Shown here: positions 7,472 through 61,455 of the stretch, piece by piece | Numbering within the stretch: the first letter of the stretch is position 1 | Layout of the letters: each line of letters begins with the position of its first letter | NCBI GenBank assembly: GCA_001692895.1 | Contig: KV748194.1 | Span: 1,794,746 to 1,858,745, forward strand | DNA length: 64,000 nucleotides | Direction: 5' to 3' | Source: Cenococcum geophilum 1.58 | Lineage: Eukaryota; Ascomycota; Dothideomycetes; Gloniales; Gloniaceae | Made by a program: the position numbers and the translations under genes | The notes under the pieces: model-generated | What the model was told of the DNA's origin: nothing | Databases searched by the model: none | Seen by the model: the letters and a program-made list of their open reading frames with translations, nothing else

Positions 7472-8689
7472 TAACAATGGTTTTAAAAAAGTCCTTTACA
7501 TACGTCTACACGCGTTTCCTGCTTACATAAGCAGACTCCTTTAGTTCGGTCTCCGCAGTAACTACTTCGGTATCCGTAGATATAGGCCTATATTAAGGCC
7601 TATATTCCTTATAGTTAGATTCTATAGATTTATTCATTTATTCTAATATTAATAATAATAATAAATTCAATTTACCGTCCGACCCGGTCCCCCTAATGGG
7701 TCCACGCAGACTAATTCCTATGGTAAAAACTTAATATACACACTGAGAAAAACCTATTTTTTAGGTAAATAAAAAACCCCTAAGGGAAACGTAAGAGGTA
7801 ATACTTCTAGATAGCATTTGTACTATATTAACGGGGGGAAAAACACCGTTAGGTTACTGCTCAGAGACCCCTAAGGAAGGTGTCTTAAATGCCTGTCTTG
7901 CCCTATCTGCCTTTTAAACCACTTTCCCTATCTATTATTGCCTATATAGAATTATATACCTACCTTTCCCCTACTCCGCCCTATATGCATATATATATGC
8001 TACTTATAGCTTCCCTACTTGCAGCATAATCCAATCTTATTATTATACCTTCTAGTATAATCTACTGCCCTCCTATATAATGCATTTATATCTAGTCCTA
8101 TATAATCTTTTTTTAAAACCAAAACAACGGGATAGTAATTGGTGCTAGGTGTCTTTTCCTAGGGCCCCAACCTAGGTCCTTTATAATATAAAGGAGGACA
8201 TATACCGCGTGCGGTAGGTCTAAGCTATTAAGTAATAATAAAGGCGGGTGGATAAGAGGCCTTAAAAGGCAATAGACGAGAGGCTTTTAGAAGGTAGGTA
8301 GATAAAGAGGCTTATTACGGGCTTTAGCCTATAAGGCGTACGTATATACTATATAGGGTCGTGTAGTATGGCGTACCATACTATATAGAAGGAGAACGCT
8401 GATTTAGATGCTGTGATTTAAGCAGGTCGACCGTATATAAAGACGAGTTAGTCGTGTTCCTAAGGCCTTGTTAGGGCTTACCCTCCCAATAGAAACTTCT
8501 TTCTTCGCGATTACCCGTCGCAGCGCCAGCGGTGCGCAGCCATACGGACGTCTCTGCGTTTGCTCTAGTAGTCTATTGACACGATCCTAATGGAACATTA
8601 ATAGTACTGCCAGGTTCCCGGGCTCCACCGCGTGGAGGTGCAGAGGCCGATTTCATGAAGCCCTTATTCTAATATTATTTAGTTCATTA
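7472..8689 (+). repeat. 5' LTR of Copia-1, interrupted
   Basis: Starts TAACAATGGTTTTAAAA and aligns with the 3' LTR at 61256-61455 (shared core: ACGCGTTTCCTGCTTA, then TTAGTTCGGTCTCCGCAGTA). The own sequence is 7472-7651 plus 8678-8689 (192 bp against 200 bp in the 3' copy, which has a longer TTTA run). It is split by a 1-kb insertion that duplicated 14 bp of the LTR. Confidence 0.8.
7652..8663. mobile_element. About 1-kb unclassified insertion in the Copia-1 5' LTR with a 14-bp TSD
   Basis: Flanked by an exact 14-bp direct repeat, TTATTCTAATATTA, at 7638-7651 and 8664-8677, which is single-copy in the intact 3' LTR. Such a long duplication is typical of target-primed insertion by LINE- or SINE-type elements and not of LTR or DNA transposons. 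The left end begins with (ATA)4-like repeats, which could be the simple-repeat tail of an element lying on the minus strand. No recognisable protein frame and no clear Pol III A/B boxes. It contains hairpin-prone stretches (GTCCTTTATAATATAAAGGA near 8175; AGTATGG/CCATACT near 8367-8384). It is visibly richer in G+C near its right end (8500-8650) and less altered by RIP than the neighbours. Family not recognised. Confidence 0.6.
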
Positions 8690-8704
8690 GGTTATAAGCA
8701 CTCA
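8690..8704 (+). other. Probable primer-binding site of Copia-1
   Basis: GGTTATAAGCACTC follows the 5' LTR directly, where the tRNA primer pairs. It resembles a RIP-altered GGTTATCAGAGC-type Copia site. The tRNA identity is not established. Confidence 0.45.
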
Positions 8705-8821
8705 TTACTACCAAGCTACGACGTTAAAAGATTAATACCTTACTATAGGTTGCATTAAGGGTTACCACACCCGTGCTAGGTCATTTCTTACTACTCTGCA
8801 TCATTTCTTATTATTAAATTA

Positions 8822-8869
8822 ACGCGTTAAGTTCGTGTATTTACGCGTCAAATTAATTTATTTACGCGT
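8822..8869 (+). promoter_or_regulatory. Three ACGCGT boxes at exact 21-bp spacing before gag of Copia-1
   Basis: ACGCGT occurs at 8822, 8843 and 8864, each 21 bp apart (two helical turns), inside a degenerate 21-bp tandem repeat ending 3 bases before the gag ATG. ACGCGT is the core of the MluI cell-cycle box bound by MBF in yeast. A regulatory role is inference. Copia-2 has three ACGCGT sites at the same place in its leader. Confidence 0.45.
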
Positions 8870-8872
8870 TAC

Positions 8873-9545
8873 CATGGGTAAAGACTATCCAGGCAGTTAA
8901 CGCCTCAAGAAAGATAGTTCAAATTGGCCTCAATATTGGACGCAGCTCAGCACGTACCTACGTGGTAAGGGCCTTCTATATATTATTTGGGAAGATATAG
9001 GCCTACTCCTCTACCCAAAGCTCTAAGAAGAAAAACCTATAATATCTATTAATCGAGTACCAAAGGACGCCAATAAGGAGGAGCGAGATGAGATTCTTAA
9101 GAGGTCCCAAATTATTGCGGATACTAATAATTTAATTCGCTTAACTAACAAGGTACTCTCTAATAAGTACGATAAGGAGCTTAAATAGTATAGTAAGGAA
9201 GACGGCAAAGTCTATTTAGTTATTCTTAGTATAATTAATAATAAGATCCTTACTGCCTTAGAGTACAAGCAGACAGTAAAGGACTATATTAATTACCTTA
9301 AGCAGACGTTTAAGGCCCGTGGCTTAATCCATAAGGTTAATATATAAAAGACTTTTATTAAGCTCCGCTTTTAATTAAACTAAGCAATTATTACTTTCTT
9401 AAGCCGTTACTAAGAAGCGGTTTAAGGAGTTAAGTAGGTAAAGCTTGCCCTAGATAACAAGATCATTAACTATTAATTTATTAACGCCGTTAACGAACAC
9501 TTCCCTATATAGGCTTAAATCTAATAACATGCGGATCGTTGGGGC
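8873..9545 (+). pseudogene. gag: gag of Copia-1, N-terminal part
   Basis: Start codon ATG at 8873-8875 in CCATGGGT. The frame reads MGKDYPGS, then a stop at a Gln position, RLKKDSSNWPQYWTQLSTYL, then WEDIGLLLYPKL, RDEILKRSQIIADTNNLIRL, YLVILSIINNKILTALEYKQ and DYINYLKQTFKARG. This is the fungal Copia-type Gag (a hydrophilic, helix-rich protein that forms the particle). The first 100 codons hold few stops, so this is one of the better preserved coding stretches of the window. The frame continues to a segment NEHFPI and QHADRW just before 9545, where the 2-kb repeat insertion starts; gag resumes near 11561. Confidence 0.75.
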
Positions 9546-11560
9546 CCGCCAACGAAAATTTTGACCCGAGCTTATAACCAATAAGCCGATCAATTAACCT
9601 AAAGCTTTAATTTAAAGGCTTATTATATAGAGTTTAATTAATATATATAGATATAAGGTTTCCTGGGGGGAGACCCCCTGGACCCCCCCTATATAGAGCT
9701 TTTACTTAATTTAGAAGTAGTAGTAAGGATAAGGCGCCTTAGTTACTGCTAGGTACATGTAGCTTATGTAGAGCTTTAGTAGAGCCTCGTGCAGAGCCTC
9801 GTGCAGAGCTTTGTGTAGAGCCTTGTGCAGAGCCACGTGCAGGCGTGCAGATGTACAGGCGTACAGACGTGTAGACGTGTAGACGTGTAGACGTGCAGAC
9901 GTGCAGACGTTTGTACTGGCGATTAATTTCAGAGACGTTTGTAGAGACGATTGTATAGTCAATTGTATAGACGTTTGATTGATCGTTTATATGGGCGTTC
10001 GATTGATCGATTGTATAGGTGTTTGATTAATTGATTGATTAATCATATGGGCGTTCGTACGGCCGATCGTGCAGACGTTCGTAGAGCGGTTGTAGAGCTG
10101 TTCGTATAGACGATTATAGAGCCTTCCTAGTATATCAGTTCTGCGTATTAGTAGAGCTTTAGAGCTCCGTATCAAGCTTCGAGTAGAATTTTGAGTAGAG
10201 CTTTAAGCTCAAGGGGGAGACCCCCTTGGACCCCCCCTGCGCACTGCGTGCTCTATTTACTGCATAGGCAGAGCTCTTATAGAGGCTTTAGTAGAGCAAT
10301 TAGTAGAGCTTTTGCAGAGCTTCGTGTAGAGCTTTATGTAAAGCTTTGTATAGAGCCTCTATAGAGCTACATGCAGGCGTGCAGACGTTCGTACGGGCGA
10401 TTAATCGTAGAGACGTTTATAGAGACGATCGTATAGACAATTGTATAGACGTTCGATTGATTGATTATATGGACGTTTAATTAATCGTTCGTATGGGCGC
10501 TCGTACGGGCGATTGTGTAAACATTTATAGAGCCGTTCGTAGAGCCGTTTATAGAGACGATTGTACGGCGATTAATCGTATGGGCGTTCGTACGGCCAAT
10601 TGTAGAACCTTCCTAGTATATTAGTACTGTGTGTTAGTAGAGCTTTAGAGCTCCGTATTAAGCTTTAAGTAGAGCTCCGAGTAGAACTTTGAGCTCAAGG
10701 GGGAGACCCCCTTGGACCCCCCCCTGCGCACTATATGCCCTATTTACTGCGTAGGCAGAGCTTTTGTAGAGCTTTGGTAGAGCTCTATGCAGAGCTTTAA
10801 TAGAGCTTCGAGTAGAGCTTCGAGTAGAGCTTCGAGCAGAGCTTTGTATAGGCGTTCGTGTAGGCGTTCGTACAGACGCTTGTAGAGATAATCGTACAGA
10901 CGATTGTAAGGACGATTGTATGGGCGATTGTAGACGTTCGTAGAGGCGTTTATAGAGACATTTATAGAGACGTTTATACGGGCGTCTGATTAATTGTATA
11001 GGCGTTTAATTAATCAATCGTATGGGCGTTCGTGTAGATGTTTGTAGAGCCGTTTATAGAGCATTTATAGAGCCGTTCGTACGGACGATTGTACGGGCAA
11101 TTGTAGAGCCGTCGTAGAGGTGTTTGTAGAGACGTTCGTAGAAACGATTGTGAGACTTCCTAGTATATTAGTGCTGCGTGTTAGTAGAGCTTTAGATCCG
11201 TATAGGGCTTTGAGTAGAGCTTCGAGCAGAGCTTCAAGGGGGAGACCCCCTTAGACCCCCCCTGCGCACTACGTGCTCCATTCACTGCGTGGCTAGTATA
11301 CTGGGTGGGCAGAGGTATTGCAAAGCCTTTGGTAGAGCTTTTGCAGAGCTTTGTACGGGAGCTTCGTGTAGAGCTTTTGCAGGGCTTTGGTAGAGCATAA
11401 TGTTTTAAAGTTCGTCACGTGTGTTCTGCAGGTAGATACCGCCCGCAAGTTTTTTTCTAACCAATTAGAAGCCAACTTTCAAACCAATCAAAAGCTGGCT
11501 TGGCGGGAGTTTGAAAATTCGAATACCCAACCTGAAAGTATAGACCACTCGTACCTCGGG
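9545..11560. mobile_element. 2-kb satellite-bearing insertion in Copia-1 gag
   Basis: Sequence foreign to Copia splits gag between QHADRW (about 9543) and IRDGYTI (about 11573). The core is a tandem array (separate entry). The ends are not resolved: an 8-bp inverted pair CCCGCCAA (9545-9552) / TTGGCGGG (11500-11507) and a 10-bp inverted pair TTGACCCGAG (9563-9572) / CTCGGGTCAA (11557-11566) exist but are not nested in a consistent way. No TSD was found. No coding frame longer than simple repeat translation. It could be a non-autonomous DNA transposon, a Helitron-like element or a captured satellite. Confidence 0.55.
9665..11400. repeat. Tandem array of roughly 0.5-kb units with G-tract/C-tract boundary motif
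   Basis: The motif GGGGGAGACCCCCTTGGACC occurs at 9665 (variant), 10213, 10699 and 11238, i.e. at intervals of 548, 486 and 539 bp. Each motif is followed by CTGCGCACT, GTGCTC/GCCC and ATTTACTGCGTAGGCAGAG. Each unit then runs through many degenerate 8-13-base steps (TAGAGCTTT; GTGCAGACG; ACGTTCGTA; GGGCGTTCGATTGATCG), then CTTCCTAGTATATTAGTRCTG, then GAGTAGAGCTTTGAGCTCAAG, and back to the motif. Three full units and a partial fourth. GGGGGAGACCCCC is itself a near-perfect hairpin. The array differs from the RIP-damaged neighbours in base composition, with many CG and GC steps kept. Confidence 0.8.
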
Positions 11561-11950
11561 TCAATAATAAGATTCGCGACGGCTATACAATTTTACTACT
11601 TTAATTAATCGCTAACCTCACTAATGAGGCTTAGTAGAAGGACTTACCTAAGAGCTTTGCCTTGGTTAATAAGCCACTGGGTAACTTATAATTGAATAAC
11701 CAGTCCGGTTAAGAACGCGGTAATAGTTATAGTCGCGGTAGAGGTGGCGGGAGAGCCAGCTATGGTGCCTTATTAGGCAATTAAGGCTCTACTAAAGATG
11801 CTTTAAATAAGTGTAAATAGTATAAGCAAGGTTATTTAGGTGGTGAGGAAGGCTGCTAAATAAAGCACGCTTACTTAAGGCCCAAATAGTGGAGACTAGA
11901 AGAGAAACGGCCTCCGCGCTTAGGTAATAGAGTAGCCTTAAATATAAATA
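11561..11950 (+). pseudogene. gag: gag of Copia-1, C-terminal part with zinc-knuckle remnant
   Basis: Resumes as IRDGYTILLL, LIANLTNEA, KDLPKSFALVNKPLGNL, then a basic Gly/Arg-rich stretch (SRGRGGGRASYG at about 11730-11770) and a nucleocapsid-like segment KCK-stop-YKQGYLGGEEGC at about 11812-11860, a decayed CCHC knuckle (second Cys and His read Tyr). The Gly/Arg-rich stretch plus knuckle is typical of RNA-binding Gag tails. It is continuous with the protease and integrase frame downstream. Confidence 0.7.
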
Positions 11951-14359: not shown

Positions 14360-14784
14360 TATAACGGAACCTTGTAGCAAGAACTACGGTGGGCTTGTTA
14401 TTAGGCTAGGTATGTAGGTAATATAAGTAAAGAAGTTAATAACGTAATAATAACTGGTGGAGTAGTTGCTTAATAAATTAACTCTAATTATATTCTAAGA
14501 ATTACTATAAGGAAGGAACTATCTAGGTAGGGACTAAGGGTCCTTAAATACACAACTATACTCCTATAAAATCCTTCTTATACGTAATATACGTCTTATA
14601 TATAAGGTACGTAAGTTCCTCTTATTCCTCTTATTTAATATATAGTATATTATATAACCTTAGCTACTATTCCTTATTATATAGTTCTACCGGTTTTATC
14701 CTAAACTATACCTAAATTAATTAACTAGCTTCTTCTAACTCTTCTCTAAGTAGTTATAATATTATACTTAAAGCGTCCGTAACA
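14360..14784 (-). repeat. 3' LTR of Gypsy-1a (425 bp)
   Basis: Starts TATAACGGAACCTTGTAG and ends GCGTCCGTAACA on the plus strand. Preceded by TSD AGGAT at 14355-14359. All four Gypsy-1 LTRs in the nest have the same 425-bp length. Confidence 0.92.
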
Positions 14785-14812
14785 CTATCTCCTTCCTCTT
14801 TATTTTTGTCCT
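14785..14812 (-). other. Polypurine tract of Gypsy-1a
   Basis: CTATCTCCTTCCTCTTTATT on the plus strand, i.e. an A/G-rich tract on the minus strand directly before the 3' LTR. It fixes the element orientation. The same tract follows the LTRs at 25886 and 478. Confidence 0.75.
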
Positions 14813-15205
14813 TAAAGATTCCTAATATCTCTAAGTTGTTTACTAGAGGTAAAATATCCGTTTAATTAATTTAGTTAATATTATTACTTATTATACCTAA
14901 AGCAATTTCTTCTTTATACGCCCAATATCGTGCTTATACCGTTGCTGCGATATTATCTCTTAGTAAGATTATACTATCTTTATATTCTTATTATTTAAAA
15001 GAGGGGTTAGTTTATATTGCGTTAGCGAACCTATCTTTATAATAACTATCCTCTTACTTAAAGTACACTAAAGCGAATATTTGTTTATCCTGCGACGTTC
15101 GCTCTATCTTTAATGCTAAATATACGCAACCTATTACTCTTAATAGTCGTCTAGTTCCCTAATTAATTTGTCTTAGGGTCTTATATTTAATTTATTACTA
15201 TACAG

Positions 15206-15544
15206 CTAGATAGTAAACTATCCTAAGCCCTTGCTAAGTTAAAACGTTCTTATAATGCGGAATAGAAGGCTTTAGATACTTACATTACGGCATCTACTTA
15301 ATTACTTCGCCTTAAGAAGGTTTATAAAAAGGTTTATTTTAAGGAGTAAAAACTTATAGAATAGGGTCTATAGGAACTTAGTAATAAAAGAACGGATTTT
15401 CTTCTAGCTAAGAAGGAAATAGATCTAAGTAGTTCAGCAACTACTCTTCTTAGGTCCCCCTTAGGTAACTTATTCTTTAGTAATCCTTTTTTATTAATAC
15501 TACCTAACCTAATTTCTTCTAATACTCCTATACCTTTTCTATAG
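15206..15544 (+). pseudogene. Antisense coiled-coil-like frame in Gypsy-1a
   Basis: A plus-strand frame of 113 codons, opposite to gag-pol, between the chromodomain and the polypurine tract: LDSKLS, a Gln-type stop, ALAKLKRSYNAE, KALDTYITAST, LLRLKKVYKKVYFKE, KLIE, ELSNKRTDFLLAKKEIDLSS and TTLLRSPLGNLFFSNPFLL. It has six in-frame TAA/TAG, all where Gln would fit a helical charged protein. Gypsy-1b keeps the same frame, length and end, and the relic at 1293 keeps its start. I recall comparable helix-rich antisense ORFs near the 3' end of fungal Gypsy elements as unnamed hypothetical proteins, but cannot check it. The sequence TACAG before LDSK could be a splice acceptor, so a first exon may lie upstream. 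Function unknown. Confidence 0.55.
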
Positions 15545-15559
15545 CGTTTTTTTTTATTT

Positions 15560-15700
15560 CTTAGTAGTTCCTAGGTAGTTTTATTATAGCCTATTTACTT
15601 AACCTTATACTATATTTTATCGTTAATATTCTTATAATTAACGATCTTTAAAACTTACTATTTGTTTTCTTCCTATCCTCTATACGTATCTACTTTATAA
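15560..15700 (-). pseudogene. pol: Chromodomain of Gypsy-1a
   Basis: The minus strand reads VLKIVNYKNINDKI, a stop in an Arg/Gln position, YKVK-stop-IGYNKTTQELL, matching the retroelement chromodomain form with its YxVKWxGY core. Upstream is YKVDTYRG of the integrase tail. In chromoviruses this domain is thought to target heterochromatin. The key aromatic Trp of the VKW motif reads as a stop (TGG to TAG). Confidence 0.65.
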
Positions 15701-15949
15701 ACTAGTGGCTTAATATTCCCGTATACTAGCTCTAGTATTGCGATATGCTATATAAGGTAAATCTTTATTTTAGCTAGTAGGTTTAATTTAAACGTAACTG
15801 GCAAAATTCTCTATATAATTTTAAAAGGTCCTAGTCTAACATAGTCCAACTTTTTACTTAGTTATTAACTCTTGAAATTTTTATATAGTAGCTATACTTT
15901 ATCTCCCTTCTTAAGATTTGGTCCCTTAGATCTCTTAGTATTATAATAC

Positions 15950-16700
15950 TTTTTTATTTTCTCTTATACTTTCTTTACTAATTCTATAAGGTCTATATAA
16001 AGATTTATTAACGTCTTTATTCTTTCTTTAGCTATACTACTTATTTTCTTTACTTACCGTAGTAATAATAATAATATTTTTAGCTTATATCCGTAATTTG
16101 CCTTAAATAGTAATATACCTATTCCTTTTTAAGGTGTTGTATTGTATACAAACTATATAACTAGTAATAGTAATACCCAATTATTCTACGCGTGATTAAT
16201 ATAGTATCTTAGATACTGCTCTAGTGTCTAATTTAATCTTTCCGTTTAACTATCTGTCTGCGGATAATATACGGTAGAAGTTGCTACTATAACTCCTTAT
16301 TCCGCTAAGAATACCTCCTAGAATACTATTATAAATCTTAAATCTCTATCTAATATAATTTTACTTAATGCTCTATATTTTATAAATACTTCTTTAATAT
16401 AGATTTTAGCGACATCTTCTGCTAATATCTCTTCTATATATACTATAAAGTATCCCCACTTTATAAGCTTGTCTACTATTACTAAGATTGCGTTATAATC
16501 TTATCCGGTAATAGGGTCTTTTAATTTTAGTAACTTAATAATAAAGTCCTATAATATAACCTCCTATAGTCTCTTTAGTATTTTAATAGGTTATAGCCCT
16601 CCATACGGCTTATACCTTATTAGTTTATTTCTTTAGTAATTTAGATATTCCTTTATAACTTTTCTTACGATATTCTAGATTCTATTAATAATATACTCCT
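15950..16700 (-). pseudogene. pol: Integrase of Gypsy-1a, catalytic triad preserved
   Basis: Minus-strand core in order: RNKLIRYKPYGGL (end of the HHCC domain; its Cys and His are largely lost), then ILVIVDKLIKWGYFI with the first catalytic Asp, YRALSKIILDRDLRFI with the second, VYYPQTDS-stop-TERLN with the catalytic Glu, then EQYLRYYINHA and FVYNTTPQKGIGILLFKANYG. All three DDE residues are readable even though the frame has several stops and the reverse transcriptase of the same copy has lost both catalytic Asp. Confidence 0.8.
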
Positions 16701-16999
16701 CCTAGAGTCTTAACACTAAGCCTATAGCTCTATTATATCCCTAAGTTAATCCCTTATAGAAATCTTTCACGAATTACTCCGCTATGCTTTTTAGGATATA
16801 CTTTACTTTTTAATTTTCGTATATATCCGCCTATAGATCTTCTAGTTACGCCTCTAGAATTCTTTATGCCTAAAAGCTTTCTAATGTCTTGTAAACCTTA
16901 TTTAGTTTCTCTTAAGTTACTATAATTTTTAGATAATTATATCTAATTAATCCGTCTATATCTTTTCGCAGTAAAGCCCCTAATGGCTTTTTATTATTT

Positions 17000-17400: not shown

Positions 17401-17559
17401 AAGAACTAGCTCCTAAGTAAACAATCTTTTAACCTCTTTAAACAATTTTTATTATTATTCTCCCCATACCTATAGTTCTTCTTTCTTTATTAATTGCGTA
17501 AATAGCTTAATATCTTTTAACTATTGCGCTATAAACCTTCTGCAGTAATTGCAAAACCT

Positions 17560-50360: not shown

Positions 50361-50479
50361 CTGGAGTAACTCTAAAAAAGAAACTAAATCGTGCTATTCC
50401 CGTTATTCGTAGTATATACGCAATAACTAGCCCTTCCGCCTATAATATGCAATAGCTGTAACGGCGCTAGGGCCCGTTA

Positions 50480-50640: not shown

Positions 50641-50649
50641 CTAAAGTTG

Positions 50650-52140: not shown

Positions 52141-52599
52141 GACCGGTAAGTTCCTTTTAACGGGAGGCGCTAAATTGAGTAACGTTGTTTTGTAAGTAGG
52201 TTATGGTATCTACTATAGCTGTAAGTAGGGGGTACTTATGTGGGCGACCTTGGCCTTATTTTAGTGCTAGTTAAGGGGCAGCTTCCTAAAATAGAGGCGC
52301 GGGTTCGTTTATTCGCGTAGGTTTTATGTGCTCTATAGCGTTATAGAGAGGAGGCTTTTTAGTTAGTTCTAGTTATAAGTATAGTTTAACAACCGTAGAT
52401 CGGAAAGATGTAGGTTTATTTAGTAACTTAACCGTATATATTTCTCCTTTAACCGTAAGCAGGTTATATAGTCCGTCCTAGTATCTAGCTTAACCCATAT
52501 TTCCTTCTCTCCATACTAGAATGGGTAAGTTTAGTAGTAGGTTATATATCGCGTTAGTTTTAGGTCCATTGCGCGTATTTAGGGCGTCTGCGATTTAAC

Positions 52600-53200
52600 G
52601 TTTAGCTTATAGTTTCTAAATTTCTACTATAGCCTTCTTAATTGCGTTTGCTTGCTATATTACTAACGGTAATAGTATATCTAATTTAACTATTTGGGGG
52701 TATGCGCCGAATACTAATAGTATAGGGACTAATCTATCCGGGCCAGCGGTGTTATTAATGGCCTTAAACGCTATTTATAGTACTATATCTTTATTAATAT
52801 TAGGGATCTTAATAGTAATTATTTAATATGCGTATTGTAGCGGTCTATAGTATCGTTTTACTATACTAATAGAGTTATGGGCTTTAACTAGAACTCCTTT
52901 TATATTAATACCTATAGTACTTACGTACTGTTTAAATTCCTTACTAATAAAGTTCTTGCCTGCGTTATATATGACTAAATCTAGTGGTCCTAGATATATA
53001 TTAATCCAGTACATCCGTAATACGTCCTATGTATATTTGGCGCTTATATTCTGTAACTACCTATTAGCTTAAAAGTGTGTTCCCTTATTAACTATATATA
53101 ATAACGGGCTTCCGCTAATATATATAATGTTGACAATAATATAGTAGTTAAAATTAATATTATCCCGTAAGGTAAAGCGGAACCGTCCTAGTGACTTTCC
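52600..53200 (-). pseudogene. pol: Integrase core of Copia-3
   Basis: An open stretch of 63 codons at 53014-52823 carries INIYLGPLDLVIYNAGKNFI (usual YDAGKNF) and KGVLVKAHNSISIVKRYYRP (usual EAHNSIxxVERYHxPL). Upstream, GSPLLYIVNKGTHF holds the first catalytic position. All three DDE residues are changed by G-to-A (D to N, D to N, E to K). Downstream, IAFKAINNTAGPDRLVPILL is the usual AVNDTAGPDGLVPTLLVFG strand. The open frame is a survivor of the integrase, not a separate gene. Confidence 0.85.
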
Positions 53201-53599
53201 GTGCTTTTAGTAATAGTAATAGTACTTAGTAAGATATTTAAGAGTCTTCTTGTTAGTATTATAGCTAGCTTAATTTAGTACTTTCTATAGCCTTTTAACT
53301 AATAGGTGGCCAAACCGACGGTATAATCGTTGTAATTCCGTGTTTATTAGGTAGTACGGGTTTAAATTAAAGGATTCTAAGAGATAAGTTTATAGGGAAG
53401 TGTTCTATACAAGGAAGGGGTGGCCGAACCGTTGTACTACTAGCACTTCCTTAATATAAGTGACGAGGACATTCTTAAGGTTATTATAGTATACCTATAG
53501 CTTATCCATATCTGCTAGGTAGAGTAGGAATAGTATATCGGCCTAAACGATATAAAACTGTATCTTGCCTATTGGGCTATTAATATATATAGTTCCGAT

Positions 53600-54330
53600 T
53601 AAGGAAGCGGTGCCTATTCCGAACTATATATTAACTTAGCCTTTTATTAAGGCGTCTAATTTTATAGATAAATCCATAGTTTGTAGTGCCTAAAATTGTC
53701 TATAACCAGCCGTAGACTTTCTTAAAGCTCCTGTGTCTATTATAATGCCTATAAATATAGTTAAGGTATATTATAATTTAGCGTTAGCACTGTATACGAA
53801 AGGATTGGTACTTAGGGCGGTTATAGCAATTTCTGTTATATCTACCGCTGTTAGTGAGTAGGTAAAGGCTTTATTGGCTAGCTCTATACTTATAAAGGTT
53901 GCTTTATTAGGTATAAGGTCTTTAAAGGTTATAAAGTAGGTGGTAAAGGGTTGCTTTGGCTTTTTTAAGTTAAGTTTAGATCTAATATCTATAATAAGCG
54001 TTTTGAAAATCTTATCGAAGTCCTCTAAATCCTTACTATTGTCTCCTTCGCAGTTAATAATATACTGCTTAAAGCGTTCCTTAAAGCGGTTATTAAACCG
54101 TCCTTTAGTATAATTGCTAAAGCGGCTTTTATATTCCTCCTTAGCCTTATTATATTCCTCCTCTATATATCTCTATAAATGGCAATCCTCTTTTTAGTAA
54201 ACGTAGTAACGTCCCTTAGATCTGCTGTTACTATTAGATTGTCCGTATATTTGGTTACAGCTAAGGTTTTAGTTATTTTAGGCGCAATTTCGGTTGTAGT
54301 AGCAGCGATCCGTAAAGAAGGTAGTATACC
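53600..54330 (-). pseudogene. pol: Protease and Gag tail of Copia-3, D-T-G kept
   Basis: The minus strand reads FIGIIIDTGALRKSTAGYRQ at about 53755-53695, an aspartic protease active site with D-T-G intact (usual IIDTGASxxSTAGY). Upstream is FKQYIINCEGDNSKDLEDFD and a Cys/Lys-rich region near 54330-54180 where a zinc knuckle is expected; only fragments of it are readable. Downstream, PIGKIQFYIV leads to the pre-integrase region. Confidence 0.72.
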
Positions 54331-54339
54331 CTTCTTAAC

Positions 54340-55501
54340 TAGGGTGTTCCTTCTCCCATATAATAATTAAAGACTGTAATTTATTAATTAACTAAGACAA
54401 GTCTTCTCTAGGGTTTAAGACGGTGATTCTATAGGTAGGAACTCCCTAGCAAGCTATAACTAGTTTATTAGTAAGAAATAGTGGTATTTAAAATTTAGGG
54501 TTAATTCTGTGCTACTGCTTATACAGCTTATCGATTAGTAGCTGGAGACACTAGTATATAGGCTTGTTGGTATTTGTGTTAATAACGCCTTATAGTGTAA
54601 TTATATTCTACTCCGTAAGGTTCTTTCTATAGAACTTAGGTCCTTTAAAGAAGTTCCGTATATGGGTATAGGCTTTTGGGTATATTCTAGTTAAAAGGGT
54701 ACGGTTGTAGTAATAATCTTATATAAGTCCCTTTAGTATAGTAGGGAATGCGATTATATAACCATTTAGTTATAGGCTAGCTCTTCTATAGATGTCTTTA
54801 AAAATAACTAATTTAAAATTAAAGCTCTCGCTAACTCTATTGTATTTCTAGCTGTCTGTATATATCTTTGCCACTATAGCAGCTTCCTTACTATAAAGGG
54901 CTGTTCCTCCTACTCCTAGGTCTAATTGCTGCTATAGGGTAGGTTGTACTAGGGTATGCTGCTATTAGCTAGGTTGCTAAGGGTTATGCTACTGCTAGGT
55001 AAGCTGCTGGGGTATATATTAAAGGTAATACTGCTATTAGGTAGCAGTTGGCGCAGTTTACTAGGGTATAGGTATAATAGATGGTTGAGGTGTTATAGGG
55101 GTAGGTGTCTATGTTCTGGGCGGTGTTAAAGCTATAGCTATAGGCTAAGCTAATTCCAGGCTAGTAGCTAAACCCGTAGCTAGATTGTTGCGGGTGGGAT
55201 TAAGTTGATCTTATAAGCTTCTAGTGTTTAGCGGTCCCTTTATCTCATTAATAGCTGCTATAAGGTCCTTATTCGTCTATTCGCGTTATTTTTCTTCTTA
55301 GATAATATCGAATAATATATTAGATAGGGTAATTCTAGCATTATACTTGGCAATATACACTCCTCTTTTAAGTAGGTGTTTTTATAGCTTAGCTCTAGTA
55401 TCCAAACGCATCTTTTGAAAGTCTTCTAGGGTAAACTCCTTAAATTCTTCTCGAAATATAGTCCACAGGGTATTGTCTAAGAAGTCCTCCTTTTCGTATA
55501 T
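54340..55501 (-). pseudogene. gag: gag of Copia-3, main part
   Basis: Minus strand from the YR-1 junction: IYEKEDFLDNTLWTIFREEF, KEFTLEDFQKMRLDTRAKL, KHLLKRGVYIAKYNARITLS, NILFDII, TNKDLIAAINEIKGPLNTRS, LNPTRNNLATGLATSLELA, a Gln/Pro/Thr-rich stretch (about 55100-54930), LDLGVGGTALYSKEAAIVAK, IYTDSQKYNRVSESFNFKLV, IFKDIYRRASL, YYYNRTLLTRIYPKAYTHIR, NFFKGPKFYRKNLTE and ITLQGVINTNTNKPIY. Typical fungal Copia Gag with a Gln-rich middle. The first 38 codons lie at 60676-60563. Confidence 0.82.
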
Positions 55502-55620
55502 ATGTTACGTGCCTATACATTGCTTGGCCGAAAACCCTGTAACTTAGGTATTTAACCAGATGTTTAACACGGTTAATAACATCATCGCTTGCAACTACAC
55601 TCAATAGGTCGTTCTTTTTA
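55502..55620 (+). repeat. A1 repeat of YR-1
   Basis: 119 bp, from ATGTTACGTGCCTATACATT to GGTCGTTCTTTTTA. It matches A2 at 60203-60321 with transition differences only. Confidence 0.88.
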
Positions 55621-55671
55621 TCATAGATTGCTTACGATTAGTGTTTATAGTGGCGATAATTATTAAGGCCT

Positions 55672-56760
55672 ATGACCGACTTTCTAGCTAATAGCACCCA
55701 TTTGAAAACTTCTTACTTAACCGCCCTATTATCTACCTCCTTATCTACGACTATCCCATCTACTAAATATACTATAGTTTTATCTTTAGAAGAAGAAAGA
55801 GCTAGGAAATAAGACGAGAGGGCCTAATAACTCTATAACCTAGAGATCCGAAAGAGAGAGTAGGAGGAATAGGCACGGATCCAAAAGACGGAATAGGAAG
55901 AGGAGTTTTACTAGGTAAGGCTAGCCGCTCTAAAGCAGCCTGCTCTACTAGAGCACACCTCTACTACTAAGGTAGATAAACTAGGTAAGTCCTATAACCT
56001 ACCGGAAGGCTTAGGCACGCTTAAGCTTAACCTCCCTAGCCTAGCCAGAAGAGACCTCTATAATATATAGAAAGGATCCTTTTGTTTAGAGAACCTAGCC
56101 CGTCTATAGGTATATGCTAGCTGCCCAGACCTTTCTAATATGGCTACTATTAAAAACGGAAAGCTTGTTTTAAAGAGACCTACTATTAGCCGCAAGGTCT
56201 ACAAGAATAAGGAGGTCTAGTTTACTGGATTTACGAACTACGTAGTGATTATAAGTACTCTCTATATATGCCTAACCAACCTCCATATAAGAATATTGCT
56301 CTAGATAAATAAGATCCGCGACTACTCCGCGACCTATAACTAGACCTCCATCCTAGACTTCGCGTTTAACTACTATAGGTATATTATAGATTGTAATTAG
56401 CTTAAGCCTAGTAACTAAAATATGCCTACCCAGTTTAAGGCCCTATACTGCTAGGCAGCTAATATAAAGGTATAGAGCCAGGGACTTAAAGTCCGTGGTA
56501 TAGCATTAAAAAGATCGCGAAAGAATACCTCCCCTCCCCTCCCCTTTAGTAAGCCCTGTTACAGCTAGAATAACTAGTAGGCTTATAGAGAAGATCTATA
56601 TTATTACTGCCACGCATGCTCTAAATGCGATAAAAACTACCTATTAAAGTCGTGCCCTAGGTAGCTTACCGCCGTGAGTAGTTAGACCTAGGATTCGATA
56701 GTAGATAAAGATATCTTCCTAGATTTAACTATCTAGATAGACCTACTATAGACGCCAAGG
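55672..56760 (+). pseudogene. gag-like ORF of YR-1
   Basis: ATG at 55672: MTDFLANSTHLKTSYLTALL, LSLEEERARK, then a charged helical stretch (ERA..LYNLEIRKREQEE), LGTLKLNLPSLARRDLYNI, GSFCLENLARL, FTGFTNYVVIISTLYICLTN, IRDYSATYN, TSILDFAFNYYRYIIDCN, and a Cys-rich end: KPCYS, then CHACSKCDKNYLLKSCPR at 56608-56661. The last part fits the Cys/His region at the end of the first ORF of DIRS-like elements (form CxxxHxCxxCxxxHxxxxCP), with its His read as Tyr. It probably forms the RNA-binding particle protein. Stops at Gln and Trp positions. Confidence 0.72.
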
Positions 56761-56879
56761 CTCCAAGGCAGGCCTAATTTAGTACCTCTTTTTAAAACTT
56801 ACTTATAAACGACTTTCCTAGCTAACTTACTATTACCTCTAAGACCTCTCACTTAGAGCACGCTCCTTTATAGGTACCC

Positions 56880-57680
56880 TAGAAATCTCCTAGCAATTTT
56901 ACAAGACATTCTTACCTATAGGGCGGAGATAGGTCCCTTGTTACCTATACTACCTAATATCTACAAAAACTACCTCTCCTTACACGATAACGAAGACCTT
57001 ATCTCTAAAAAGATTGTTATTAACCTGGCCCTAGGCCGTATACAGGCCACTAACTCTGCAGTTACCTTACCCCTAGGCCTAGTACCTAAGGCAGATAGCG
57101 GCTTCCGCCGTATTTACGACCTCTCTTTACCTAAGGGCTTCTTAGTTAATGACTTTATCGACCTAGCCTAGGTAGTACTACACTATACCCAGATAGAGAC
57201 TATACTAGCATACGTAATTACAGCTAGTAGAGGCTACTACCTAGTTAAACAAGACATTAAAGATGCCTTCTAGATGGTGCCCGTTTTAGTGCGGTCGCGT
57301 TACCTACTTAGCTTTATTTAGAAGGGAGTTATATATATTAAATGCTGTCTGCTATTTAGCTTACAAATAGCCCTATTCCTTTTTAACTTATTTACCGAAG
57401 GTTTCTACTAGATCCTAGCATAATAGATTAACTCCGCTATTAAGCACTACCTTAATAATTTTATATTCGTGGTTAAGTGTCTAACTATACTGCCGTTACT
57501 AAGGGAGGTATACCTCTTAGTTACTGACCAGCTAGGGGTACCCCGAAATAATACGAAGAATATTAAAGGTATAGAGGCGGAAGTATTAGGTTATACTATT
57601 AACACTATAGTAATAAAGATAAAACTCTCACTAGCTAAGTAATAGAAAGCTATTAATTAGGTAACTAAAGCCCTCTAAAA
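56880..57680 (+). pseudogene. Reverse transcriptase of YR-1
   Basis: An open stretch of 77 codons from 56938 reads LPILPNIYKNYLSLHDNEDL, NLALGRIQATNSAVTLPLGL, VPKADSGFRRIYDLSLPKGF (usual VPKxDGGWRxIHDLSxPxGxSVND). Then ITASRGYYLVKQDIKDAF (usual DIKDAFRxxP), SRYLLSFI, KGVIYIKCCLLFSL, LFNLFTEGFY, and the catalytic box as HYLNNFIFV at about 57445-57470 (usual HYLDDFxxV). Both Asp read Asn. The VxPKxDGGxRxIHDLS signature is that of DIRS-type reverse transcriptases, not of Gypsy or Copia. Confidence 0.85.
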
Positions 57681-57689
57681 GGGCTAGCT

Positions 57690-58360
57690 ATTATTACAGC
57701 AAGCCTAATAACTAGCGGGCCGCCTAGCATAGTATATAAGAGTTATCCGCCTTAGGCGCTCGTACTCTTGCTCCTTATAGGACTTTATAACAAAATGGCC
57801 TACTAGGTTATTAAAAAATATGCCCTAGCGCCTCCCCCTAGAGCTAAAAGAAGACCTTAACCTCTAGCTTAAGGTTCTTATATTAAGTAACGGTATACTA
57901 TTTTTTAATAATAAGGAGAGGCCGTAGTTTTACTTATTTACCGACGCCTTATTACTTAAAGGCTATAGAGGCTTCTACTTTAGTAGAGAGAACGGCCACT
58001 GGCCTAATTACGCGGCTTCCCTACCCTAGGCCTAGGCCTTTAACTATTATCCCCTACTAGACCAGGCGGATAACCATATTAACCTAAAAGTGATATATGC
58101 TATTACAAAGGCATTTAAAAAGTAGTTATTAGTCTGGCGGCATGGGTCTCTTTGTATTTATATAGACAATATAGTTACTTATAGCGGCATCTAGAATAAT
58201 ATTATAAAAGGTTCTAGAAACTAATTACTCTAAGAGATACTTATATCCTTAATAACAAATAATATTACTATAATAACCACATAGGTCTCTAGCGCCAACA
58301 ATAGGCTTACTAATGCTCTCTCGCAATTTAACCGCGAGAAATTATTATTACTGTGCCCTA
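57690..58360 (+). pseudogene. RNase H of YR-1
   Basis: Continues the pol frame: LYLFTDALLLKGYRGFYFSR at about 57930-57990 (usual TDASxxGxGGxx), NGHWPNYAASLP, NHINLKVIYAITKAFKK (usual INxxExxAIxxA), LCIYIDNIVTYSGI (usual DNxxxxxGI), ILISLITNNITIIT, VSSANNRLTNALSQFNREKL (usual ANxLADALSRF) and LLLCPK. The layout corresponds to the RNase H fused behind a DIRS reverse transcriptase. Confidence 0.78.
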
Positions 58361-58374
58361 AGTAGCAAATGAAT

Positions 58375-58484
58375 GACGGCTTCTTGCCAGATAAATAACG
58401 GCTTCTTGCCGGATAAATGACGGCTTCTTACCAAATAAAAGACGGCTTCTTGCCGGATGAATAAAGGCTTCTTACTAGAAAAAT
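58375..58484 (+). repeat. 22-bp tandem repeat, five units, between RNase H and recombinase of YR-1
   Basis: Units start at 58375, 58397, 58419, 58441 and 58463, each like GACGGCTTCTTGCCGGATAA. The period is exactly 22 bp and not a multiple of three, so it shifts frame from unit to unit and marks non-coding spacer. It is followed by a run of C (about 58546-58554). Confidence 0.85.
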
Positions 58485-58589
58485 AATATCTCTCCTCTAG
58501 GTAGCTGCTAACTCTTGCAGTTAACCCAGAGTCGTTTAATTAACCCCCCCCCCGACCTTCTAGAGTGAGATCGGTGGGTTTTATTACTT

Positions 58590-59515
58590 TTTACTACTTA
58601 TATGGCATGGCTTAGCAGCCAATATAAAGAAAGGCTACTCCTCCGCTATTAAGAGCTGGGAGGCCTTCTTAGCCCTAAATAGTTTATTACCGTATCCGGC
58701 TAAGAGGATAAACTTAGGGGAGTGAATTGCCTAACGAGTATTTAGTACAGCCGCCCCTCTAATGGGCAGGATTAAGCTAGAAACCCTCTCTAACTATATC
58801 TCCGTAATCCAATCTCGTTATATAGACCTAGGTCACTTAATCGCCGCCTTTAAAGACCATACTATTAAAAGGGCCTTAATGGGGGCTATATTACTATTCC
58901 TATCTACTAAAAAGACTAAACTACTAATTATAAAGGATATCTTAGACAAGATTGTTACCTCTAGACCCTATAAGGCGGATACAAACATAGACGCGGCATT
59001 TACGATGGCGTTTACGGGTTTCCTATATATAGGAGAGATTACGTACCCAAATAGGAAAGCTAAGGACTTTAGCACTACGAGGGCCCTCTATAATAATATT
59101 AGGATCGCCCCTAATAGCTATTTAATGGTCTTCTACCTAAAACGGAGCAAGATAGATAAAACCTATAGTGGTGTTAATATCTAGATCGCCGCTATACTAG
59201 GAGATCGTCTATACCCCATAGCCGCGATAATACGGTTATTTAACCGTAACCCCCGGCCTTTATTAGATCTATTATTTAGCGTTAATAATAAAGCATTTTC
59301 GGCGCTAGTAGTGCGTAAGATTCTATTAACCCACCTAGCCGCTGGCGGCATCCTACCTAACGGCTACTCTAACTACTTCTTTTATAGGGGTACAGCGTAG
59401 TATATACATAATTGTGGCTTTATAGAGTTATAAACAGCGTAGTTAGGTTAATAGATATTAGATACGGTAAAACTTTACTATAATACCTTAGAAACCGAAC
59501 GACTTTAATTAAACT
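58590..59515 (+). pseudogene. Tyrosine recombinase of YR-1
   Basis: The N-terminal core-binding part reads AANIKKGYSSAIKSWEAFLA, LPYPAKRINLGE and AAPLMGRIKLETLSNYIS. An open stretch of 140 codons at 58762-59184 covers AFKDHTIKRALMGAILLF, KLLIIKDILDKI, NIDAAFTMAFTGFLYIGEIT and MVFYLKRSKIDKTYSGVNI. After one stop come IAAILGDRLYPIAAIIRLFN and the catalytic end. Box I has Tyr instead of Arg (GFLYIGE; usual GFLRxGE). Box II reads SNYFFYRGTA near 59371-59395 (usual HSFRRGAA), so the His and first Arg are lost. The Tyr nucleophile remains in TVKLYYNT at about 59467-59487. It would integrate a circular DNA copy without a TSD. Confidence 0.87.
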
Positions 59516-59579
59516 TAAACTTCTAGCAGAGCATGCCTATACTAGCTAGGGAAGCCTAATATAGGGACTTTATACTTTC

Positions 59580-59995
59580 TGTTACGGGACTACCCTATAA
59601 CACCTTATATACGCTACCTGCCGTATTCTACCGTAATCTGCCGCATTCTACCATATTCTGCCTACCACCGCAAGATTATCCTATATTCGCAACACCTGTA
59701 ATATTAGTAATATCCATAACCTCTGCTAAGTTCTATTAAGTCTGCTAAATTCTGCTAAATTCTACCAAGTTTGCCGAATTCTGTAAAATTCTGCTAAATC
59801 TGCCGAATTCTGCCAAATTCTGCTAAATCTACCAAATTCTGCTAAATTCTGCCAAGTCTACTAAATTCTACTAGGACCGTGGTAACTTATTAACTAAGCA
59901 ACTAAGTTAACAATATATACCCATTCTCCTTACTTCCTTACCTTCTTTCCTTACATAATGTCTTAATTTTATTACACAGTTTATACTACGGAAAT
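59580..59995 (+). repeat. Gypsy-3-type LTR fragment inside YR-1
   Basis: Starts TGTTACGGGACTACCCTATA and CACCTTATATACG like the Gypsy-3 LTR, passes through a long decamer array (about 59620-59880), then GTAACTTATTAACTAAGCAA and CATAATGTCTTAATTTTATT as in that LTR, and loses similarity after CAGTTTATAC (about 59987). No internal region, so it is a solo LTR or a truncated copy. The right end and TSD are not resolved. Confidence 0.65.
59700..59880. repeat. Decamer array (ATTCTGCTAA type) in YR-1
   Basis: About 15 units such as ATTCTGCTAA, ATTCTGCCAA, TTTGCCGA and ATCTACCAA, mostly 9-11 bases apart. It is the longest array of this motif in the window. Confidence 0.8.
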
Positions 59996-60045
59996 AGCTC
60001 CTATTTTAACTTAATTCTTTATAGGTAGTAGGCGCTTCGCTAGTA

Positions 60046-60205
60046 GGTACTAGGTAGGATTTAGGCTAAATCTCCAAAGTTTAGGCCTAAAAAGCCTTAT
60101 AAACACTAGGATATTACCTAGATCCCGCCCTATAGGCCTACACCCCCTATAATCGATATATTTAAAATGGACTATAACCTATTCATGCCATACAAGAGAT
60201 AGATA
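60046..60205 (+). repeat. B1 repeat of YR-1
   Basis: About 160 bp, GTAGGATTTAGGCTAAATCT ... CAAGAGATAGATA; matches B2 at 60403-60562 (offset 357). It runs straight into A2 with a shared ATA at 60203-60205. Confidence 0.85.
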
Positions 60206-60321
60206 TTACGTGTCTATACATTGCTTGGCCGAAAACCCTATAACTTAGGTATTTAACCAGATATTTAACACGGTTAATAACATTATTACTTACAACTACA
60301 CTTAATAGGTCATTCTTTTTA
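60203..60321 (+). repeat. A2 repeat of YR-1
   Basis: 119 bp, matches A1. The B1-A2 junction (GATAGATATTACG) is where a circular intermediate would carry the recombination site. Confidence 0.88.
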
Positions 60322-60402
60322 CCCACCTACCCCCCTTACGATATATATTAGATTAGTTACTTGCAGTCCTGTTTAGGTCTAGCGGCGGGCTATTCTATTA
60401 GG

Positions 60403-60562
60403 GGCACCGGGTAGGATTCAGGCCAGATCTCCAAAGTTTAGGCCTAAAAAGCCTTATAAACGCTAGGATATCGCCTAGATCCCGCCCTATAGGCCTGTAC
60501 CCCCCACAATTAATATATTTGAAATGGACTATAACCTATTCGTGCCGTGCGAGAGATAGATA
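60403..60562 (+). repeat. B2 repeat of YR-1
   Basis: The right end of the element, GTAGGATTCAGGCCAGATCT ... CGAGAGATAGATA. The next base begins the Copia-3 gag continuation. Confidence 0.85.
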
Positions 60563-60676
60563 AATCTTTATTTCCACAAACTCCGCTAGTTTGTCCTTTA
60601 TAGTCTCGCCTAAATTAATTCCGCCGCCGTATTTCCTGACCTTTACGGCCTATTCTTGTTCTTTCGCTAATGCCAT
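60563..60676 (-). pseudogene. gag: gag of Copia-3, N-terminal 38 codons
   Basis: The minus-strand start codon at 60676-60674 opens MALAKEQE, a stop at a Gln position, AVKVRKYGGGINLGETIKDK and LAEFVEIKI. The frame then meets the right end of YR-1 and resumes at 55501 with IYEKEDFLDNTLW. The start is chosen because it sits at the end of the leader and the frame is open. The plus-strand open frame over this region is a shadow. Confidence 0.75.
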
Positions 60677-60689
60677 GGTTGTAGGTGTG

Positions 60690-60729
60690 AGGGTTAAGGT
60701 TAAGGTTAAGGTTGAGGTCGGGGTTAAGG
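60690..60729. repeat. Telomere-like GGTTAA repeat in the Copia-3 leader
   Basis: GGGTTAAGGTTAAGGTTAAG, then GTTGAGGTCGGGGTTAAGGG. It reads CCTTAA repeats on the coding (minus) strand, 13 bases upstream of the gag start. It resembles but does not equal the fungal telomere repeat TTAGGG. Confidence 0.7.
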
Positions 60730-61049
60730 GTTATATATACGTTCTCTACAGCCGTCGGGCCTGTAAAGTGTTCTTAGCAAGACTGCTATTCTCTTAGTAA
60801 TCTATTATATTGGCTATAAGGCCAGTACAAATTCTCTTAAGCTTAAGGGAGGTCGTAATCTTTTAAGCAAAGATACAATTCTCTAGGCGATCTAACGCGT
60901 CGGCGGTTAAGCTAATACGTGGTCTCAAGCTTTAAGGGTAATATAGCTTTCTCCTTTAACTAAAATAGGGCGATAACTTTGCGATCATTGAACACCAGGT
61001 AAGTAGTGCTGTTTCTGCGTATTTCCTAATCTATACGTCTACTAATTAG

Positions 61050-61220
61050 TGTTGGTATATATGCTTTAATTAACGTATATAAGTATCACTGTATTATAAT
61101 ACGTATGCGGTATTAGTTGTTAGATAATTAATTGTTTTCTAATGTAGTGTTGGTAGTATATATACGCGTCTCGCGTAGGTTATATGCTTTATACACGTGA
61201 CATAGATATATATACCAACA
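61050..61220 (-). repeat. 5' LTR of Copia-3 (171 bp)
   Basis: TGTTGGTATATATGC ... GATATATATACCAACA; followed by TSD GATCT at 61221-61225. Confidence 0.92.
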
Positions 61221-61255
61221 GATCTGCTTCTATTTTAGTAAAGTACTAAGGTATA

Positions 61256-61455
61256 TAATAATAGTTCTAAAAGAGTCCTCCATATACGTCTATACGCGTT
61301 TCCTACTTATATAAGTAGACTCTTTTAGTTCGGTCTCCGCAGTAATTACTTTAGTATCTATAAATATAGGCCTATATTAAGGCCTATATTCCTTATAGTT
61401 AGATTTTATAGATTTATTTATTTATTTATTTATTCTAATATTATTTAGTTTATCA
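61256..61455 (+). repeat. 3' LTR of Copia-1 (200 bp)
   Basis: TAATAATAGTTCTAAAAGAG ... TATTTAGTTTATCA. It aligns with 7472-7651 plus 8678-8689. It contains a (TTTA)n run at about 61410-61433 and keeps the empty 14-bp target of the 1-kb insertion once (TTATTCTAATATTA). Followed by TSD CAGCC. Confidence 0.82.

What the first reader, a model, noticed from the sequence alone, without database searches (positions are those of the whole stretch)
7472..61455. One 5.6-kb Copia element stretched to 54 kb by insertions nested four levels deep
Every layer can be peeled off by an exact or RIP-altered 5-bp target duplication: YAGCC (Copia-1), AGGAT (Gypsy-1a), GTAAT (Copia-2), TATYG (Gypsy-1b), ATCTA (Gypsy-2a), TTATA (Gypsy-2b), GATCT (Copia-3). 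Reading frames rejoin after each removal, for example LLKG/GYHQ in Copia-1 and NSIT/RYLLPL in Gypsy-1a. This gives a relative insertion order for seven elements and shows that the locus kept receiving elements without loss of the oldest frame.
Basis: seen in the sequence. Interest (0 to 1): 0.82.

Follow-up and report, generated by a model that had tools for sequence, protein, structure and literature searches.

The report
Nested retrotransposons in a RIP-mutated fungus

Summary
The nest is real. Seven LTR retrotransposons sit at the stated places; their 5-bp target duplications are exact in five cases and one transition apart in two. Other copies in the genome show empty sites: Gypsy-1a 28 of 29 loci, Copia-2 29 of 29, Gypsy-2b 19 of 29 joined (4 one-sided, 6 not reaching), Copia-3 3 of 3 loci fetched for it; Gypsy-2a 39 of 39 best-scoring places. 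Depth is four layers, base included.

Corrections. (1) Three inserts are missing from the list: 7652-8663 and 9526-11564 in Copia-1, and 55505-60561, which splits a 6-kb Copia-3. (2) The last has no target duplication and shows the A1...B1-A2-B2 repeats of Ngaro-type tyrosine-recombinase retrotransposons; 17 other near-full-length copies were found. (3) No frame of 150 aa survives, and LTR divergence is no clock: 166 transitions, 1 transversion over 1,779 aligned bases.

The same architecture is in print for Mycosphaerella graminicola (PMC4522978), so this is a new member of a known kind. The Ngaro-like family is the more interesting part.

The parts
7472..61455 (+). Copia-1, base element, layer 1; 5,571 bp of its own in six pieces (7472-7651, 8664-9525, 11565-14359, 42597-43984, 50074-50189, 61226-61455)
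   Evidence: LTR pair 7472-7651/61256-61443, 180 aligned, 20 transitions, 0 transversions, one 8-bp gap; duplication TAGCC/CAGCC; 29 other loci L010-L038; piece 13275-13433 weakly like SH3_retrovirus PF25597, E 0.011, below cut-off; strand from LLKG/GYHQ on plus
7652..8663 (.).
   Evidence: L072 joins 7651 to 8664 with 13-bp overlap, 1 of 1 locus fetched; 13 other near-full-length copies and 1 partial at 90-94%; sequence read
9526..11564 (.).
   Evidence: 24 of 29 loci joined across it, the other 5 not reaching; 486-bp and 12-bp tandem units; partial copies on C4, C25, C78 and C84 that start at the same end
14360..42591 (-). Gypsy-1a, layer 2, inserted in Copia-1; 7,917 bp of its own
   Evidence: LTR pair 91.1%, AGGAT x2, empty site in 28 of 29 loci; minus strand from NSIT/RYLLPL
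18079..24119 (.).
   Evidence: LTR pair 93.3%, GTAAT x2, empty site in 29 of 29 Gypsy-1 loci; 20 other copies scored, 19 of them in one match
25886..40149 (-). Gypsy-1b, layer 3, inserted in Gypsy-1a, same family as its host; 7,916 bp of its own
   Evidence: LTR pair 92.9%, TATTG/TATCG; Gypsy-1b is itself unbroken across the site that it interrupts in Gypsy-1a
32665..39007 (.).
   Evidence: LTR pair 92.2%, ATCTA x2; Gypsy-1a tail unbroken across the site, and 39 of 39 other Gypsy-1 places scored (of 3,584 first-look candidates) unbroken
43985..50068 (.). Gypsy-2b, layer 2, inserted in Copia-1; same family as Gypsy-2a, lacking about 288 bp that Gypsy-2a has; 6,084 bp
   Evidence: LTR pair 83.3%, TTATA x2, 19 of 29 loci joined, 4 touching one side only, 6 not reaching; 39 of 39 other Gypsy-2 places scored (of 1,095 candidates) keep the stretch
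50190..61220 (-). Copia-3, layer 2, inserted in Copia-1; 5,974 bp of its own in two pieces
   Evidence: LTR pair 88.9%, GATCT x2, empty site 3 of 3 loci fetched for it; 23 other loci end at the site; open piece 50867-51208 minus reads like a Copia RNase H by eye, no Pfam match
55505..60561 (+).
   Evidence: 9 of 9 Copia-3 copies that hold both halves are contiguous across it; four empty sites read; 26 other copies scored, 17 near full length
55505..55620 (+). A1 repeat
   Evidence: 92.2% to A2
60053..60205 (+). B1 repeat
   Evidence: 88.9% to B2
60206..60321 (+). A2 repeat, directly joined to B1
60410..60561 (+). B2 repeat, 3' end of the element
56857..57168 (+). open piece of reverse transcriptase, 104 aa
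   Evidence: 88 of 93 candidates are relatives at E <= 1; of 4 such relatives scanned, 2 (P0157, P0149) match RVT_1 at E 2.2e-5 and 3.2e-5, below Pfam's cut-off
58735..59397 (+). tyrosine-recombinase region, two open pieces (149 and 71 aa) separated by a stop
   Evidence: 76% and 85% identical to P0209; P0209 matches phrog_1 integrase at E 7.9e-4 over residues 2-295

Best explanation
A 5.6-kb Copia element inserted in repeat-rich DNA and then served as the target for later insertions: five pieces went into it directly, three into those, and one into the next, giving four layers and 54 kb. The LTR elements went in with 5-bp target duplications (shown), the mark of the ordinary integrase route (established knowledge). 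One insert, 55505-60561, went in by a different route: its ends, repeats and lack of target duplication fit a tyrosine-recombinase retrotransposon of Ngaro type, whose circular DNA copy would recombine at an AT dinucleotide (anatomy shown, enzyme and circle inferred). Repeat-induced point mutation then hit the copies, closed the frames and produced nearly all LTR divergence (supported by composition and by the transition excess). Why the insertions landed on each other needs no special targeting: if about 80% of the genome is repeats, most insertions hit a repeat (inference).
For: LTR pairs and duplications. Empty sites in other copies; random-site control. The two Gypsy-1 copies check each other: Gypsy-1b is unbroken at both places where Gypsy-1a is interrupted, Gypsy-1a is unbroken where Gypsy-1b is interrupted. 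RIP: TpA/ApT 1.4-2.1 and (CpA+TpG)/(ApC+GpT) 0.23-0.71 per 2 kb, CpG observed/expected 0.65-1.21, similar by layer; 166 transitions to 1 transversion over 1,779 aligned LTR bases. Ngaro-like insert: A1...B1A2B2 repeats, no duplication at four empty sites, left flank ending in AT in 8 of 8 copies read, RT and recombinase pieces in the order RT then recombinase.
Against: Only one assembly was available; no reads. The empty site for Gypsy-1b rests on one in-window copy. rank places by match to the query, so unbroken copies are favoured there. For the recombinase: PF00589 finds nothing in the whole genome, Pfam names none of the 7 recombinase relatives scanned and NCBIfam none of 3, PHROGs gives integrase below E 0.001 for 1 of 3, Cre appears only at E about 1, both predicted structures were of low confidence, and no recombinase is among the 50 rows shown by either fold search. 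The end of the protein that should hold the catalytic tyrosine was not found among the window's open pieces.
Confidence: 0.93

Rival explanations
1. The 54 kb is an assembly artefact: separate repeats collapsed or joined wrongly.
For: 45 scattered N in the window, clustered in Copia-2, Gypsy-2a and Gypsy-2b; families with thousands of first-look candidates (3,400 and 3,584 for Gypsy-1).
Against: No N run longer than 3 bases; each LTR element is bounded by its own LTR pair and matching duplication, and the flanks meet in other copies; a misjoin would hardly give paired duplications seven times.
Confidence: 0.03
2. The insert 55505-60561 is not a tyrosine-recombinase element but another LTR or non-LTR element with rearranged terminal repeats.
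For: No curated Pfam or NCBIfam match for the recombinase, none for PF00589 in the genome, uninformative fold searches.
Against: Near-full-length copies match from A1 to B2, no target duplication, phrog_1 integrase match over nearly the whole of P0209, weak alignment of its C-terminal part with the C-terminal part of Cre.
Confidence: 0.12
3. The stack grew because of targeted integration into heterochromatin or into a hotspot inside Copia-1, not by chance.
For: Several elements in one base; in L011 another Gypsy-1 LTR lies about 20 bp from the Gypsy-1a site in the opposite orientation (distance read by eye).
Against: 28 of 29 Copia-1 loci have no insert at that site; a genome with about 81% repeats (the figure of PMC5023957 for Cenococcum geophilum, if this is that fungus; passages) makes nesting likely without targeting. 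No genome-wide test was made.
Confidence: 0.2

Closest known systems
Nested retrotransposon clusters of Mycosphaerella graminicola (Zymoseptoria tritici), PMC4522978
   Same: LTR retrotransposon as base in 49 of 78 clusters, short duplications (many of 5 bp), RIP-like signature, 7.5-63 kb; one cluster on chromosome 9 (1,052,214-1,078,572) is written base 242 with (49 (263 (623))), i.e. four layers (section 8 read; passages)
   Different: Different genome and families; clusters there hold 2 to 7 different elements, here nine inserts in one base; one insert here is of the tyrosine-recombinase type
Copia elements of filamentous ascomycetes (PMC5445492) and the Cenococcum geophilum genome (PMC5023957)
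   Same: 177.57-Mb genome with probable RIP and many Copia families, 81% repeats (passages); the present genome has 177.19 Mb
   Different: The species of this genome is not given; the identification is a guess from size and composition and was not tested
Ngaro retrotransposons of fungi (PMC3783388; PMC4502367)
   Same: A-pol-B-A-B repeat order with RT and, probably, tyrosine recombinase (PMC3783388 abstract, introduction, section 12 and passages)
   Different: PMC3783388 found one among Ascomycota (Neosartorya fischeri) in a survey of 177 fungal genomes; PMC4502367 later reports one complete family in Zymoseptoria tritici (passage). Automatic annotation lists Ngaro hits in some other Ascomycota (passages). 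Here 18 near-full-length copies including the window's were found

Membership tests
Nested LTR retrotransposon cluster (as in PMC4522978) | Pieces of the base element together form one element with its own LTRs and duplication | tested here: met
Nested LTR retrotransposon cluster (as in PMC4522978) | Each inner LTR element has its own LTR pair and short target duplication | tested here: met
   6 of 6 inner LTR elements; the three other inserts are not LTR elements
Nested LTR retrotransposon cluster (as in PMC4522978) | Empty sites in other copies | tested here: met
   Gypsy-1b site by one in-window copy only
Ty1/Copia and Ty3/Gypsy superfamilies | Order of integrase and reverse transcriptase in pol, and RT phylogeny | tested here: inconclusive
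   39 open pieces give no Pfam match above cut-off; RT motifs of Copia-1 and Gypsy-1 seen by eye only; no tree was made
RIP-mutated repeats | CpA to TpA transitions, high TpA/ApT, CpG not strongly depleted (criteria recalled) | tested here: met
Ngaro | Split direct repeats A1 ... B1 A2 B2 with the inner pair downstream of the recombinase (PMC3783388, PMC4157794 passages) | tested here: met
Ngaro | No target site duplication (recalled for this class; the passages that I saw do not state it) | tested here: met
   four empty sites against the window's flanks, and, in 8 of 8 copies read, a 3' end that is constant but for transitions while the right flanks differ
Ngaro | Reverse transcriptase | tested here: met
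   2 of 4 relatives scanned match RVT_1 at E 2.2e-5 and 3.2e-5, below Pfam's cut-off of 29.6 bits; one of the 88 listed relatives bears a precomputed PF00078
Ngaro | Tyrosine recombinase | tested here: inconclusive
   phrog_1 integrase E 7.9e-4 for 1 of 3 relatives and a Cre alignment at E about 1, but no PF00589; fold searches with a low-confidence model uninformative
Ngaro | No methyltransferase (separates it from PAT and DIRS1-like elements, PMC4157794 passages) | tested here: inconclusive
   no such match among the ten open pieces scanned with Pfam, but the pieces are short and do not cover the element
Ngaro | Position in an RT or recombinase tree with reference elements | not tested
   no reference Ngaro proteins were fetched

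The most novel reading that the evidence does not exclude
The overlooked insert belongs to a Ngaro-like tyrosine-recombinase retrotransposon family that multiplied to at least 18 near-full-length copies in a RIP-mutating, probably dothideomycete, ascomycete, integrates at AT dinucleotides without target duplication, and escapes PF00589. Described Ngaro families are few in Ascomycota, and the several hundred relatives in public genome and metagenome collections, none with a telling name among those listed, suggest that such elements are widespread and have been overlooked because RIP erodes their domains below profile thresholds.
Probability: 0.6. Interest if true: 0.42.

Novelty: new member of a known kind. 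Interest (0 to 1): 0.3.

Why it matters
The locus is a clean worked example of how retrotransposons pile into each other in a RIP-mutated genome, with each LTR layer checked against an empty site. It also shows a practical trap: LTR identity does not give the insertion order here, because the substitutions are almost wholly transitions. Gypsy-2b (83.3%) lies inside Copia-1 (88.9%) yet looks older. The overlooked Ngaro-like insert shows that counting 5-bp duplications alone misses elements that integrate by recombination, and adds a multi-copy case to a group of which few families have been described from Ascomycota.

Tried and rejected
Dating by LTR divergence: rejected, all but one of the substitutions are transitions. 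A first count gave 6 transversions for Copia-1; that alignment wrongly included 12 bases of the insert 7652-8663, and with the right boundary there are none, so I dropped the idea that Copia-1 is measurably older by this measure. Gap columns (22 in each Gypsy-1 pair, 8 in Copia-1, 2 in Gypsy-2b) were left out of these counts.

Extra 36415-36702 in Gypsy-2a as a fifth-layer insertion: rejected, 39 of 39 other copies scored have it, so it is most likely a deletion in Gypsy-2b (the ranking favours copies that have it).

Same-site insertion in L011: by eye it is about 20 bp away and in the opposite orientation, so an independent insertion.

Literature searches: Ngaro with fungi and related terms, 23 papers, 10 listed; DIRS with Cenococcum, 0 papers; Ngaro with Pezizomycotina, 3 papers by listing; Ngaro with Ascomycota, 11 papers by listing, of which passages were seen in five; DIRS with Dothideomycetes, 2 by listing; Ngaro with Aspergillus, 17, 12 listed; Ngaro with Zymoseptoria tritici, 2. 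Three of the passages give Ngaro counts from repeat annotation tables, up to 126 in a Sporothrix genome, so 'few described' is not 'never seen'. Terms for nested insertions in fungi: 116 papers, 15 listed.
Full report
What is there. The window lies in a 177.19-Mb genome of 162 contigs without a name. It is AT-rich (33% GC); per 2 kb TpA/ApT is 1.4-2.1, (CpA+TpG)/(ApC+GpT) 0.23-0.71 and CpG observed/expected 0.65-1.21. That is the CpA-to-TpA bias of ascomycete RIP (recalled). Size and composition fit Cenococcum geophilum (177.57 Mb, probable RIP, PMC5445492 passages; 81% repeats, PMC5023957 passages), but that was not tested.

The seven LTR elements. Self-comparison gives an LTR pair for each, and the bases outside each pair match as 5-bp duplications, five exact and two with one transition. 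Two random 5-mers of the window match exactly in 0.26% of draws and within one transition in 1.0%.

Empty sites. The search with 12900-14359 scored 40 of 67 candidates, and 29 loci besides the window's own were held. Of these 29, 28 join 14359 to 42592 (the exception, L011, has another Gypsy LTR nearby), 19 join 43984 to 50069 (4 touch one side only, 6 do not reach) and 24 join 9525 to 11565 (5 do not reach). Three loci fetched for the purpose join 50189 to 61221, 3 of 3, while 23 others end at that site; one locus joins 7651 to 8664, 1 of 1. The search with 17079-18078 scored 40 of 3,400 candidates; of the 29 other loci held, 29 are unbroken across the Copia-2 site. For Gypsy-2a, 39 of 39 other places scored, of 3,584 candidates, are unbroken, though that ranking favours unbroken copies; Gypsy-1a in the window is also unbroken there. 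For Gypsy-1b the proof is in the window alone: Gypsy-1b is unbroken where it interrupts Gypsy-1a. With 2,000 random pseudo-sites, 1,996 gave no joined locus, and the other four gave counts equal to those of real sites.

A search with the whole of 50190-61220 splits it: of 22 places scored, 9 hold both 1-5314 and 10367-11031 of the query (some with small gaps near the start) side by side, and 13 hold only the middle, about 5309-10372, as a family of its own. So an element of 5,057 bp, 55505-60561, sits in a 5,974-bp Copia-3. A search with that element scored 27 of 1,860 candidates: the window and 26 other places, 17 of which cover at least 175-5041 of 5,057. Two further inserts lie in Copia-1: 7652-8663, with a 13-14-bp duplication and an AT-rich run at one end, hence probably non-LTR; and 9526-11564, minisatellite-rich with sharp ends.

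The Ngaro-like element. Its repeats are A1 55505-55620, B1 60053-60205, A2 60206-60321, B2 60410-60561; B1 and A2 abut, so their junction repeats the element's end joined to its start. Four empty sites from Copia-3 copies show that nothing was duplicated. In 8 of 8 copies read (7 others and the window) the left flank ends in AT, if the element's first base is taken as changed by a transition in two of them, and the 3' end of the element is constant but for transitions while the right flanks differ. Its open pieces, used as they stand, find relatives: 250 of 270 candidates at E <= 1 for the 149-aa piece, 88 of 93 at E <= 1 for the 104-aa piece, 343 of the 7,995 scored at E <= 0.01 with the profile. 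Of those listed (120, 88 and 120) none bears a name other than hypothetical protein. Of four relatives of the 104-aa piece scanned, two match RVT_1 at E 2.2e-5 and 3.2e-5, below Pfam's cut-off. The relative P0209 (313 aa) matches phrog_1, integrase, at E 7.9e-4 over residues 2-295; two other relatives do not reach E 0.01. Residues 251-290 of P0209 align with the end of Cre at E about 1; that this part of Cre holds its catalytic His, Arg and Tyr is recalled. Against: no PF00589 match in the genome although PMC3783388 says that this profile detects such domains, no Pfam name for 7 relatives and no NCBIfam name for 3, and low-confidence models with uninformative fold searches. The repeats and the missing duplication are the strongest evidence; the enzyme is inferred.

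Frames and dates. No frame of 150 aa is open between stops, and the three larger pieces of Copia-1 hold at least 108 stops in 1,680 codons. The seven LTR pairs differ by 166 transitions and 1 transversion over 1,779 aligned bases (Copia-1). Hence identity measures RIP more than time. Nesting gives the only order, and a partial one. The near absence of transversions suggests that the seven elements went in within a time too short for ordinary mutation to mark (inference).

Standing in the literature. PMC4522978 (section 8 read; passages) describes 78 putative nested clusters in M. graminicola, 7.5-63 kb, 49 with an LTR base, 35 of these with verified duplications, one written with four layers. 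The present nest is a new member of that kind. Ngaro in Ascomycota: one, in Neosartorya fischeri, in a survey of 177 fungal genomes (PMC3783388, abstract and passages), a complete family in Zymoseptoria tritici (PMC4502367, passage), plus counts in repeat annotation tables elsewhere.

Noticed in passing
55505-60561: Ngaro-like tyrosine-recombinase retrotransposon inside Copia-3, 17 other near-full-length copies found in the genome
   Followed up: yes
7652-8663: 1.01-kb repeat with a 13-14-bp duplication in the 5' LTR of Copia-1, 13 other near-full-length copies and 1 partial at 90-94%
   Followed up: partly
9526-11564: GC-richer (45%) insert of 12-bp and 486-bp tandem units with a hairpin-like stretch near one end; few partial copies found elsewhere, no clear duplication
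   Followed up: partly
61659-64000: Another repeat family starts 204 bp right of Copia-1: 39 other places scored at 88-91%
   Followed up: no
456-7455: Left flank holds a Gypsy-1-like LTR copy (456-1294, about 70%), a reverse-strand Gypsy-2-like stretch (4160-5305, 63-70%) and a repeat shared between 1378-1737 and 6916-7455
   Followed up: no
50508-50624, 59722-59873, 61856-61996: A similar 10-bp-based minisatellite (TTCTGCTAAA-like) occurs in Copia-3, in the Ngaro-like element and in the right flank
   Followed up: no
L011:1440-1540: In another Copia-1 copy a Gypsy-1 LTR lies about 20 bp from the Gypsy-1a site, opposite orientation (by eye)
   Followed up: partly
17896-48054: 45 scattered N bases, mostly in clusters (for example 22281-22355, 36211-36293, 37816-37883, 44381-44441), no run longer than 3
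   Followed up: no
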